NCBI GenBank assembly: GCA_009873655.1
Contig: WAIB01000001.1
Span: 119,676 to 183,675, forward strand
Direction: 5' to 3'
Origin: Nitrospinota bacterium
GTDB taxonomy: Bacteria; Nitrospinota; Nitrospinia; Nitrospinales; VA-1
Length of the DNA stretch: 64,000 bases
The position numbers were made by a program, and so were the translations under genes. The notes below the pieces were generated by a model. The model was not told where the DNA came from. It was given only the letters and a program-made list of their open reading frames with translations, and made no database searches. Shown in pieces: positions 11,667 through 14,344 of the stretch. Each line of letters starts with the position of its first letter. Position 1 is the stretch's first letter.

Positions 11667-12140
11667 TTAGGAAAAAGCTTTTTTGGCGACATCCAACAGC
11701 GCGTCCACGGTTCTGCAGCCTAAAAGTTGCGCATCTTCTCTGGCCACTTCTTCGCCATTTGCATCCACCGCAATTACCGCACGGTTAAGATAACGGCTTT
11801 TTACACCTTCCAAAGTCAGCTTATTGGCATTACCAAATCCCTGGCTTACATCCTGAAGGAGATTGGGTAAGCCTCTTCCAGCATTGGACAGGATATCTGT
11901 TCCCACTACGACAATGACTTCATCGGCACCGGCTGCTTTGAACTTGTCCTCATTTTCTTTAACCAGGTCAAACTCTTTATTGCAAAAACCACCAGCGCCC
12001 GGCAGGGTGATTATGAGTCTCTTCCCCTTAAAATCATCAATAGACAATTCCTGTTCCAGAGGAGTGGAAGCCGCATTTTCGACGGACCATTCCGGGTTTA
12101 ATTTAATCATTTTCACATCACTGCCAGCCAATTTTGCCAT
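11667..12140 (-). CDS. Peroxiredoxin-like redoxin (Prx5-type) with altered active site
   Basis: A 157-residue thioredoxin-fold protein of the redoxin/Prx5 kind. It has the LSIDDFKGKRLIITLPGAGGFC segment, the DEVIVVVGTDI strand and the NRAVIAVDANGEEV strand. In typical peroxiredoxins the motif is P-x3-T-x2-C; here P47 is followed by GAGGF and then C53, one residue short and without the Thr. A second Cys, C142 near the C-terminus, could act as a resolving residue. The protein may reduce peroxides, but the motif change makes this uncertain. An AGGAGG-like site precedes the ATG. Confidence 0.7.
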   Translation of the reverse strand: MAKLAGSDVKMIKLNPEWSVENAASTPLEQELSIDDFKGKRLIITLPGAGGFCNKEFDLVKENEDKFKAAGADEVIVVVGTDILSNAGRGLPNLLQDVSQGFGNANKLTLEGVKSRYLNRAVIAVDANGEEVAREDAQLLGCRTVDALLDVAKKAFS

Positions 12141-12343
12141 GTAGAAACCTCCTGTTTTTGGGTTTTAATAGAGACCTGTGTTAGATGTGTAACCGCATAT
12201 AAGGATGCGAAAATTGTACAAAAAAATTCGACCTTCCATTAATTTATAAATTATTGAATTTATTAAGCAAACCAATTATGGCTAAAGACTCCCATATTTG
12301 TTAACCTTTTAAAGATAGGAATAGGTTTGGGAGCAAGTCTAAT

Positions 12344-13924
12344 ATGTCAAAAAGAACGGGAGTTGCAATTTTATGTGGTTTTTTTGCCATTTGTTTTTTC
12401 ACCGGGTCCGCATGGGGGCAGGAATCAAAGCGACCTTACTATGAGTATCCGGGTAATTATCGAGATGAAATCAATCAGCTGAAAGCGGATTTTAAGAAAC
12501 AGTTCGGCTACGAACTGATTGATCTGGAGCACGAATGGCGACCCTGGGAAATTAAAAAGCTGGCCACGGCTTTCTCTAAATTGCCGGATTCCTTTCTTGG
12601 AATAAAAGGCCTTAAAGGGTTTTACCACCTCACCCAGTTTCGCGGAGGGCCCGAAGGGATGCCCGTGGATGAAATTCCGGCAGCCACATTTCCCAGTTTT
12701 CAACCCGTTTATAGAGGTTCCAGAATGTCCTATCAAATAGAGTTGGGAAATCAGGAACCTCGAGTTGAGTTTTACTCCAAGCTTTTTTATGCAGACCAGG
12801 AAAACCTGAGCAATATCGTCCAGCATGAAATGGCCCATATTTATGATATGTTCAAGGGCTATCTCTCTTTTTCCAATGAATGGCTGGAAATCACAAAATT
12901 TAAATTGATCCATCTTCCGGCGCTGGATTCCAGACCCGGAGATGACTATTTATTCACCCTTTTGAACGAACCTGAAGAGATTCATTATGCTCCTGTCTCT
13001 TCCATCCAACTTCCGACTTATTCCAGGCAAAATCCCCAGGAAGATTTTGCCAATTCAGTAGCCGCCTATATCAATTATCCGTATTTTCAATTCAGTCACC
13101 CTGAGAGATACCAGTTTCTGAAGGAAAAAGTGTTTGGGGGAAAGGTATATTTCCCGGAAGAAAAAACCGGGTTCAAGGAAAAAGTAACCGCTGATTTTAT
13201 ACAGGCAATAGAAAATAAAAACTGGGAAAAGGTTGTAGAAATTGCCAAAGAAGCTTCCAGAGATTATTACCCGGATTTGGAGGTAGAGCTGGTTCGGCGA
13301 CTGGAAAGCGTCCTTGCGAAGACCCCGGATTCGACCCGAGATGTTAAATTTGCCCTGGCCAGCTGTTACCTGGTTGACCCGGGTGCATTAAAAATACGAA
13401 AAAATCTGATTCGCAAAAAACGCGTTTCATTGCAAGTGCTCCTGGAGAACCATCGGTGCTCTTTAATGGCCCGGCGATCCTTTGAAAAGGAACTTGGAAT
13501 ATGGTCCATGCGCAATATTTACTTTTACCAAAGCAAAGGAAAATCCTATATTCAATTCCTCGATCCTGTTTCTTTGACATCAAGGGCCAGAGGGTTTGAT
13601 TCCCGCTATATGTGGAAGATTTTTTACGAAGGAAGTAATGTCCATTTAGCCGAAGGAAGTTATATCCAGGAGGGGATAAAAACAGGTTCCATCAAAATTG
13701 ATCTTGGTGAGACTGCTGTGGGAAACCTGAACATTCCCCATGGTAAACCGCTGATTCTGGAACTGGGGGTCCAGCGGGTGCATCCGATTGAGTTTAAAAG
13801 GTTAAAATCAAAAACGGCAAAGATCCGCTTTGTTATTCCTCCAGGGTTTAATTATGAGGGCTTGAAGAAGCCTCAAATAAAAACGGTTTATCCTTTACGT
13901 CCTGAATTTAAAGGCCTGTACTGA
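12344..13924 (+). CDS. Secreted HExxH zinc-metalloprotease-like protein
   Basis: A 526-residue protein with a clear signal peptide (cleavage near SAWGQ, residue 26). It contains an HExxH zinc-binding motif, H161-E-M-A-H165, inside an amphipathic helix (NIVQHEMAHIYDMF). About 70 residues on, the segment QE233DFANSVAAY resembles the Glu-containing third-ligand helix of gluzincins. The C-terminal half (about 280-526) has a region of helices and then a beta-rich stretch, unrecognised. No close family can be named. It stands alone, 200 bases after the redoxin gene on the other strand, and converges with the DUF1566 gene at a 3-base gap. Exported peptidase is the best inference. Confidence 0.65.
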   Translation: MSKRTGVAILCGFFAICFFTGSAWGQESKRPYYEYPGNYRDEINQLKADFKKQFGYELIDLEHEWRPWEIKKLATAFSKLPDSFLGIKGLKGFYHLTQFRGGPEGMPVDEIPAATFPSFQPVYRGSRMSYQIELGNQEPRVEFYSKLFYADQENLSNIVQHEMAHIYDMFKGYLSFSNEWLEITKFKLIHLPALDSRPGDDYLFTLLNEPEEIHYAPVSSIQLPTYSRQNPQEDFANSVAAYINYPYFQFSHPERYQFLKEKVFGGKVYFPEEKTGFKEKVTADFIQAIENKNWEKVVEIAKEASRDYYPDLEVELVRRLESVLAKTPDSTRDVKFALASCYLVDPGALKIRKNLIRKKRVSLQVLLENHRCSLMARRSFEKELGIWSMRNIYFYQSKGKSYIQFLDPVSLTSRARGFDSRYMWKIFYEGSNVHLAEGSYIQEGIKTGSIKIDLGETAVGNLNIPHGKPLILELGVQRVHPIEFKRLKSKTAKIRFVIPPGFNYEGLKKPQIKTVYPLRPEFKGLY

Positions 13925-13927
13925 CCT

Positions 13928-14344
13928 TTAATCCGTTTCCCGAACCATGCGATAAGCCATATTTAAATGAGCATATTTTGAGGGCCATACTTTCATTCCA
14001 TCCTCATACTGGATAACCAGTGCGGAAGAATCTTTTTCTTCATTGGTCCATGTGGTTCCCGCGCTCCCCGGCTCAAAAATAGAAGGGAGGTAAATTTCGT
14101 CCCCATATTTGTCAGTATTTTTAAATTTGAGATCAAAAAGCGACCATGCTTCATCCTGTTTGGGATAACGCCAGTCATCATATCCCGCTAATTTTTCCAG
14201 GTTGGCGATTTCTACGTAATCCTGGCCCTTAAACCAGTTCATCCATTTTTGTGTGTCCTGGAATGAATCTGTTTTTCGCCAAATTAATTTCAATTCGTTG
14301 TCCGTAATGGTTCCGTTACCATTATCGATAAATCTATCAGCCAT
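13928..14344 (-). CDS. DUF1566 (Lcl C-terminal-type) protein
   Basis: A 138-residue protein of the DUF1566 family. It begins RFIDNGNGTITDNELKLIWRK, the typical opening (dnGdGTVtD..TGLmW), and continues with NLEKLAGYDDWRYPKQDE, matching the family's GyddWRlPt motif, and a closing YRMVR strand. No signal peptide is visible. The biochemical function of the family is unknown; a C-type-lectin-like fold has been proposed. It lies downstream of the small gene at 14409 on the same strand. Confidence 0.7.
   Translation of the reverse strand: MADRFIDNGNGTITDNELKLIWRKTDSFQDTQKWMNWFKGQDYVEIANLEKLAGYDDWRYPKQDEAWSLFDLKFKNTDKYGDEIYLPSIFEPGSAGTTWTNEEKDSSALVIQYEDGMKVWPSKYAHLNMAYRMVRETD

What the first reader, a model, noticed from the sequence alone, without database searches (positions are those of the whole stretch)
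12344..13924. Exported HExxH protein with gluzincin-like third-ligand helix
A signal peptide, H161-E-M-A-H165 and E233-D in QEDFANSVAAY form a plausible zinc site, yet no known peptidase family is evident. The long C-terminal region is unassigned. It stands alone, suggesting an independent function in the periplasm or outside.
Basis: partly seen in the sequence, partly recalled or inferred. Interest (0 to 1): 0.5.

Follow-up and report, generated by a model that had tools for sequence, protein, structure and literature searches.

The report
Exported lethal-factor-fold zinc protease of Nitrospinaceae
Bacteria of the Nitrospinaceae and their order carry one copy of an exported, very probably zinc-dependent protease whose catalytic core belongs to the same wide superfamily as Pro-Pro endopeptidases, MtfA and anthrax lethal factor, but which forms a separate, uncatalogued family with a tail of its own.

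Summary
In detail: a 526-aa exported ORF (12344-13924 +) with H161-E162-x-x-H165 and E233. Y226 lies exactly seven residues before E233, the YX6E arrangement described for MtfA, lethal factor (LF) and PPEP-3 (passages). A profile search and a weak template-free model place residues ~43-267 among ATLF/PPEP/MtfA-like gluzincins. 'No known peptidase family' holds at family level: this protein reaches no Pfam or NCBIfam cut-off. The gene is single copy and an order core gene: 28 of 28 good genomes of the order, 0 of 13 genomes of the phylum outside it. In the genomes searched its C-terminal half (276-526), with an invariant Cys pair, occurs only here. It is its own transcription unit but fixed in position, tail-to-tail with an Lcl_C gene in 30 of 30 loci. 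Best reading: an envelope zinc endopeptidase with a housekeeping role; substrate unknown. New family of a known kind; moderate interest.

The parts
12344..13924 (+). ORF, 526 aa, exported YX6E-type gluzincin
   Evidence: orthologues
12344..12418 (+). signal peptide, residues ~1-25
   Evidence: hydropathy of 47 sequences; cleavage site inferred
12476..13168 (+). peptidase domain, residues ~45-275
   Evidence: A1 vs A3 hhalign Prob 99.7 over 52-274; four short relatives (315-318 aa) end just after this domain; VIA Z 10.5 to PPEP-3 over model 16-240, i.e. window residues 43-267
12824..12838 (+). H161-E162-M-A-H165: two zinc ligands and general base
   Evidence: H161, E162, H165 invariant 64/64
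13019..13021 (+). Y226, predicted oxyanion-hole tyrosine
   Evidence: invariant 64/64, seven residues before E233 in 64/64; equivalent Tyr190/Glu197 in PPEP-3
13040..13051 (+). E233-D-F-A: third zinc ligand and its helix
   Evidence: invariant 64/64 (in 15 of these rows partly by selection); column aligned with the Glu of the LF YX6E motif, position 735 by my count (Glu735 is a zinc ligand)
13172..13492 (+). C-terminal helical region, residues 277-383, with invariant C341 (13364-13366) and C372 (13457-13459)
   Evidence: pLDDT 68-89 in the blocks 281-360 of the full model; Cys invariant 47/47; the only Cys after the signal peptide
13502..13843 (+). C-terminal beta-rich region, residues 387-500, fold not assigned
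   Evidence: secondary structure; VIA best Z 6.0, not informative
11667..12140 (-). divergent neighbour: redoxin-family protein (context)
   Evidence: PF08534 27.8 bits, cut-off 26.6; adjacent and divergent in 21 of 30 loci
13928..14344 (-). convergent neighbour: Lcl_C-domain protein (context)
   Evidence: PF07603 56.4 bits, cut-off 34.9; tail-to-tail in 30 of 30 loci

Best explanation
It is an exported zinc endopeptidase of the YX6E gluzincin superfamily (ATLF/PPEP, MtfA, Mx1 and relatives) and the founder of a family confined, in the genomes searched, to the order of Nitrospinaceae. Proposed working: the signal peptide sends it across the inner membrane (inferred). H161, H165 and E233 hold zinc, E162 activates the water and Y226 stabilises the oxyanion (conservation shown, chemistry inferred from homology). 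C341 and C372 form a disulfide in the periplasm (inferred). The C-terminal helical plus beta-rich half (276-526) positions the enzyme or selects its substrate (inferred). Single copy, purifying selection, order-wide presence and fixed position point to a housekeeping processing or quality-control task on an envelope protein rather than a toxin or an acquired effector (inferred; substrate unknown). My probability is about 0.88 that it is a zinc metallopeptidase of this superfamily and about 0.5 for the envelope-housekeeping role.
For: Ligands, base and tyrosine invariant in 47/47 sequences of the order, and in 64/64 when 15 proteins of another (unnamed) phylum and 2 cyanobacterial plasmid proteins are added. 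Y-to-E spacing of 7 in 64/64; H161-to-E233 distance of 72 in 47/47. Published YX6E core for MtfA and LF; His153/Glu154/His157, Tyr190 and Glu197 in PPEP-3. Profile A6 against PDB: LF 1.6e-6, PPEP 8e-4, MtfA 0.016, Mx1 lipoprotein 0.065. Foldseek: 19 of 28 rows are LF, PPEP or certhrax; VIA Z 10.5 PPEP-3, 9.6 Zmp1, 9.5 LF. hhalign against 10 relatives of another phylum Prob 99.7, reversed-sequence control 0.2; against 7 phage-contig relatives 96.8, reversed 0.1. One of those 10 relatives, L108, is itself over the MtfA/M90 Pfam cut-off (27.4 of 26.2 bits). 28 of 28 good genomes of the order. dN 0.049 against dS 0.504.
Against: This protein reaches no Pfam or NCBIfam cut-off; among the other 17 members scanned the best Pfam E is 3.7e-4, for DUF7103, at 21 of 27 bits. 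A profile of the order's sequences alone finds no peptidase in PDB (protein A, urease, bacterioferritin and others, taken as chance). The A6 profile that does has 7 phage-contig rows of 11, which may drive the match; its best single LF stretch has i-Evalue 7.9e-4 and covers only the YX6E part, not HExxH; it also lists a ribosomal protein (0.14) and a mitochondrial processing peptidase (0.94). Models are weak (pLDDT 45.5 and 48.1), no Foldseek row has E <= 0.001, 9 of 28 rows are photosystem II chains, and the tool warns that middling Z is common. One relative outside the order has lost HExxH. Zinc content and activity are untested.
Confidence: 0.85

Rival explanations
1. A substrate-trap, adaptor or structural protein that binds zinc but no longer cleaves, as other ATLF domains have become.
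For: One relative outside the order lacks HExxH. PMC12943098 (passages) describes a Leptospira domain of this fold without the zinc ligands and says that the protective-antigen-binding ATLF domain of LF lacks HExxH.
Against: The general base E162 and Y226, which are not zinc ligands, are invariant in 47/47.
Confidence: 0.07
2. A gluzincin of unrelated origin that converged on HExxH plus EDFA; the ATLF-like match is an artefact of the motif.
For: Low-confidence models; no Pfam cut-off reached by this protein; an order-only profile finds no PDB peptidase.
Against: hhalign covers residues 52-274 against relatives of another phylum at Prob 99.7, reversed control 0.2; conserved positions outside the motif (P81 62/64, W180 60/64, Y256 63/64, F264 64/64); Y-x6-E spacing exact in 64/64.
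Confidence: 0.05
3. A secreted effector or exoenzyme used against other cells or for scavenging, not an envelope housekeeper (same chemistry, different role).
For: PPEPs are extracellular (passage); relatives sit on plasmids and in viral contigs.
Against: Single copy, order core gene, same chromosomal neighbourhood in 30 loci, dN well below dS.
Confidence: 0.3

Closest known systems
Pro-Pro endopeptidases (PPEP-1/Zmp1, PPEP-2, PPEP-3; ATLF domain PF07737)
   Same: exported; HExxH; tyrosine seven residues before the Glu ligand (Tyr190/Glu197 in PPEP-3); best structural rows (Z 10.5 and 9.6)
   Different: PF07737 not listed for any of 18 members at E <= 1; 72 residues from first His to Glu against 44 in PPEP-3 (153 to 197); extra C-terminal half; residue after EDFA is N in 47/47; Pro-Pro specificity untested
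Catalytic domain of anthrax lethal factor (M34)
   Same: HExxH + E + Y with YX6E; A6 profile match E 1.6e-6 with the E233 column on the YX6E Glu
   Different: a single-copy core gene of an environmental order; no sequence match to the toxin's other domains was seen in the searches made
MtfA (M90, PF06167)
   Same: YX6E core; weak Pfam and PDB matches; the relative L108 passes the M90 cut-off
   Different: this protein is below cut-off (12.7 of 26.2 bits); exported; long C-terminal half
Peptidase_Mx1 / substrate import-associated zinc metallohydrolase lipoproteins (PF15890, TIGR04549)
   Same: exported gluzincin; in-register match of the A3 relatives to 9urd and 4l7a
   Different: below cut-off (12.5 of 25.6 bits); no lipobox seen; none of the seven neighbour proteins scanned is a SusC/D-type protein
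Uncatalogued exported relatives in an unnamed phylum (L096-L110) and plasmid proteins of cyanobacteria (P0001, P0002)
   Same: same domain with Y-x6-EDFA and the Y256/F264 motif
   Different: EDFAE or EDFAD instead of EDFAN; different or no C-terminal half; His-to-Glu distance 50-112; 1 of 10 scanned passes a Pfam cut-off (M90)

Membership tests
YX6E gluzincin superfamily (ATLF/PPEP/MtfA-like) | HExxH on a helix | tested here: met
   64/64; helix predicted at window residues 152-170 in the domain model (low confidence)
YX6E gluzincin superfamily (ATLF/PPEP/MtfA-like) | Glu third ligand with Tyr seven residues before it | tested here: met
   E233 and Y226, spacing 7 in 64/64; motif as published
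YX6E gluzincin superfamily (ATLF/PPEP/MtfA-like) | common core fold | tested here: inconclusive
   VIA Z 10.5 to PPEP-3 (161 aligned, rmsd 4.3), 9.5 to LF, 7.5 to Mx1 4l7a, but model pLDDT 48.1 and no Foldseek E <= 0.001
YX6E gluzincin superfamily (ATLF/PPEP/MtfA-like) | zinc binding and peptidase activity | not testable with these tools
   needs purified protein
PF07737 ATLF / M34 / PPEP | Pfam gathering score 27.4 bits | tested here: not met
   not listed for any of 18 members at E <= 1; relatives come closer: P0002 22.8 bits, L112 23.7 bits
PF07737 ATLF / M34 / PPEP | Pro-Pro cleavage (PPEPs) | not testable with these tools
   needs a peptide assay
PF06167 Peptidase_M90 (MtfA) | Pfam gathering score 26.2 bits | tested here: not met
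   12.7 bits; a distant relative, L108, scores 27.4
PF15890 Peptidase_Mx1 | Pfam gathering score 25.6 bits | tested here: not met
   12.5 bits in own genome; 16.7 bits for L046
PF15890 Peptidase_Mx1 | lipoprotein signal (as in TIGR04549) | tested here: not met
   by eye on the N-termini printed: no lipobox in the window protein and no Cys shared by the 47; no predictor was run
PF10263 SprT-like | Pfam gathering score 25.6 bits | tested here: not met
   14 bits, only 138-167 around HExxH

The most novel reading that the evidence does not exclude
The order of Nitrospinaceae carries, as a core gene, an exported lethal-factor-fold protease with an order-specific C-terminal targeting module. A wide set of mostly uncatalogued EDFA-type proteases in another phylum, on cyanobacterial plasmids and in viral contigs would then be the environmental background of the superfamily from which the better-known PPEPs and toxin enzymes are specialised offshoots.
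Probability: 0.3. Interest if true: 0.6.

Novelty: new variant of a known kind. Interest (0 to 1): 0.4.

Why it matters
Nitrospinaceae are abundant marine nitrite oxidisers (recalled, not from a call). An envelope protease present in all 28 good genomes of the order that were searched points to an unknown envelope process that they do not give up. It also suggests that the ATLF/MtfA-like superfamily is wider than the catalogues: three groups of relatives (another phylum, cyanobacterial plasmids, viral contigs) share Y-x6-EDFA, and of the 19 of them scanned (10, 2 and 7 domain stretches) one passes a cut-off of a peptidase family in Pfam.

Tried and rejected
Family searches: SprT, M90, M76 and M91 match weakly around HExxH, all below cut-off; over the 18 members SprT (12 members, best E 0.0019), M90 (11), Mx1 (6), M91 (5), M76 (4), Mx (2) and DUF7103 (1, E 3.7e-4, 21 of 27 bits) appear. 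NCBIfam: LIC13305_lipo in 11 of 18, best E 0.003, not followed further; Rpb4-like NF011550, E 0.066, taken as chance. PDB phmmer hits to capsid proteins (E 0.0049) and A1 hits to protein A, urease and others: taken as chance. Phage tblastn hits at E 3-5 in 33 records, 20 listed, many annotated as dNMP kinase: taken as chance. PHROGs and PADLOC: none for this protein. Viral contigs with A1 or P0001: no relative; L112 and L113 as queries returned only themselves. PF15887 in the own genome: none. Full-length AF2 model with 4 rows: pLDDT 45.5, not usable for the active site; its PDB matches (many Ig-type folds, best VIA Z 6.0) are not informative. Alignment A5 misplaced HExxH in three phage-contig rows and was replaced by A6. 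(A1 against A6) is not informative because A6 contains the window; one search repeats it without those rows and with reversed sequences as control. C-terminal half: no fold assigned; it was not modelled alone.

Literature, all in the one held library: 'Nitrospina + metallopeptidase' (2 papers, listing only, no sign of this protein), 'Nitrospina/secreted/protease/proteome/Nitrospinae' (20 papers, 12 listed, listing only), 'Bdellovibrio/lethal factor/metalloprotease/HExxH' (32 papers, 8 listed), 'Nitrospinae + ATLF' (none), 'Nitrospinota + metalloprotease' (none). So no report of this family was found by those searches. Searches were for PPEP, MtfA and LF; of those papers I saw passages of PMC12943098, PMC5668564, PMC6356308, PMC12828418 and PMC9266454 (the last not used); PMC3841139 held none of the terms sought.

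Limits: the 15 proteins of the other phylum were picked out by a regular expression for an EDFA-like motif, so conservation of E233-A236 in that group is partly by selection. Each of the 15 loci L096-L110 gave one such ORF, so none of the 15 was dropped, but most other matching genomes (53 of 191 matched) were not read; G206's protein, which lacks the site, is not among the 64 rows. From 56 ORFs 9 were left out of the 47-row alignment: three duplicates (L001-L003), four fragments (L021, L029, L053, L055), L014 (start at the contig edge) and L035 (very similar to L034). L004 is the window's own copy.

Full report
OBSERVATION. The ORF at 12344-13924 (+) is intact, 526 aa, ATG start. The window lies in a 2.53-Mb genome in 59 contigs; the nearest named relatives are Nitrospinaceae MAGs with 74-75% identical orthologues.

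DISTRIBUTION. A protein search finds it in 39 of 46 genomes of the family and 54 of 77 of the phylum. All 54 lie in the same order (54 of 64 there); 0 of the 13 genomes outside the order have it. Among genomes at least 90% complete and at most 5% contaminated it is in 28 of 31, and the three without it (G046, G047, G067) are outside the order. The ten misses inside the order have completeness 59-84%. It is single copy; G015 and G037 give two pieces each. G015's lie on two contigs. G037's are two places far apart on one contig, and one of them (L053) reads through a run of X; both were left out of the alignment. A profile search of 291 genomes adds one genome, G206; in the phylum of G206, 53 of 191 genomes match at E <= 0.01.

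CONSERVATION. In 47 full-length sequences (the window's own included), 45 positions are invariant, among them H161, E162, H165, D168, W180, Y226, E233, D234, F235, A236, C341 and C372; 14 of the 45 lie in 226-250. With 15 relatives of the other phylum and two cyanobacterial plasmid proteins added (64 rows), H161, E162, H165, Y226, E233, D234, F235, A236 and F264 are still 64/64, and Y226 is always seven residues before E233. H161-E233 is 72 residues in 47/47, against 50-112 in the others. The position after EDFA is N in 47/47 here, E in 15/15 and D in 2/2 of the others. For L002 against L003, the closest pair of four sequences compared, dN is 0.049 and dS 0.504; most other pairs are saturated at synonymous sites.

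WHAT IT IS. This protein reaches no Pfam or NCBIfam cut-off. The link to known enzymes comes in steps. hhalign of the order's profile (A1) with ten relatives of the other phylum (A3) gives Prob 99.7 over residues 52-274, reversed control 0.2; with seven phage-contig relatives 96.8, reversed 0.1. One of the ten A3 proteins, L108, passes the Pfam cut-off of M90/MtfA (27.4 of 26.2 bits); the other nine pass none of those listed, nor do the seven phage-contig stretches or the two plasmid proteins. Profile A3 finds Mx1 lipoproteins, PPEPs, LF and MtfA in PDB at E 0.014-0.8. Profile A6 (window domain, three orthologues, seven phage-contig relatives) finds LF at 1.6e-6, PPEP at 8e-4, MtfA at 0.016; the best single LF stretch has i-Evalue 7.9e-4 and covers the YX6E part only. 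In the printed LF alignments the E233 column falls on the Glu of the YX6E motif; counting along the stretch 710-771 given for 1j7n puts it at 735, and Glu735 is a zinc ligand of LF (PMC5668564, passages). PMC6356308 (passages) describes the shared MtfA/LF core as HEXXH + E + Y with a YX6E motif. PMC12828418 (passages) gives His153, Glu154, His157, Tyr190 (oxyanion hole) and Glu197 (third ligand) for PPEP-3: the same spacing of seven. The A6 model is weak (pLDDT 48.1, pTM 0.49), yet 19 of 28 Foldseek rows are LF, PPEP or certhrax, the other 9 photosystem II chains with probability up to 0.04 (none with E <= 0.001). VIA gives Z 10.5 for PPEP-3 (161 aligned, rmsd 4.3), 9.6 for Zmp1, 9.5 for LF, 7.5 for Mx1 4l7a; it realigns Foldseek's own rows and is not a separate search, and AlphaFold was trained on PDB.

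ARCHITECTURE. Signal-like N-terminus; peptidase domain about 45-275, whose end is supported by 315-318-aa relatives that stop just after it (L099, L103, L107, L109); helical region 277-383 with the only two cysteines of the chain after the signal peptide, both invariant; beta-rich region 387-500. A search of 195 genomes with the C-terminal half alone (A7) finds 54, all in the order, the same 54 as. Its fold is not assigned.

CONTEXT. In 30 loci examined (those with longer flanks; the other orthologue loci were not used), an Lcl_C-domain gene lies downstream on the opposite strand in 30, at 12-273 bases by the alignment ends, and a redoxin gene upstream and divergent in 21; IHF/HU- and MerR-type genes lie upstream on the same strand in 22 each, EF-G in 21, and an NtrY-type kinase downstream in 28. 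So it is its own transcription unit in an old, fixed neighbourhood. Whether the Lcl_C pair is functional or only inherited is open.

MECHANISM. Shown: conservation, spacing, distribution, architecture. Inferred: export, zinc binding, catalysis, disulfide, role. I commit to an envelope zinc endopeptidase with a housekeeping task; a secreted effector or exoenzyme is the main rival for the role, and a non-cleaving protein the main rival for the chemistry. A homologue that lost HExxH exists outside the order (G206), as is described for other ATLF domains (PMC12943098, passages), so loss of activity happens in the superfamily; in the order it has not in any of the 47 sequences aligned.

NOVELTY. 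A new family within a known superfamily, with an order-specific C-terminal half: a new variant of a known kind. Interest 0.4.

Noticed in passing
L096-L110: An unnamed phylum (53 of 191 genomes at E <= 0.01) holds many HExxH...Y-x6-EDFAE proteins, 315-657 aa in the 15 read, with signal-like N-termini in most; several genomes have two or three matches. One of 10 scanned passes a Pfam cut-off (M90).
   Followed up: partly
L086:3465-5279 (G206): An exported-looking 604-aa relative with the same N-terminal stretch but no HExxH and a changed third-ligand motif: a natural pseudo-site.
   Followed up: partly
L057:2566-3282, L058:2659-3378: Small plasmid proteins of Anabaena and Planktothrix with the same Y-x6-EDFA metallopeptidase domain, near DUF87 and DUF692 genes.
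   Followed up: partly
L112, L113, L115, L117, L118, L120, L122: Viral contigs encode the same domain, in L112, L113, L115, L117 and L120 near the C-terminal end of long proteins (reading frames of 525-845 codons).
   Followed up: partly
window 13928-14344 (-): Lcl_C-domain gene without an obvious signal peptide (by eye), tail-to-tail with the protease gene in 30 of 30 loci; the gap here is 3 bases.
   Followed up: partly
window 12141-12343: Divergent region of 203 bases shared with a redoxin gene; the arrangement is kept in 21 of 30 loci; not searched for motifs.
   Followed up: no
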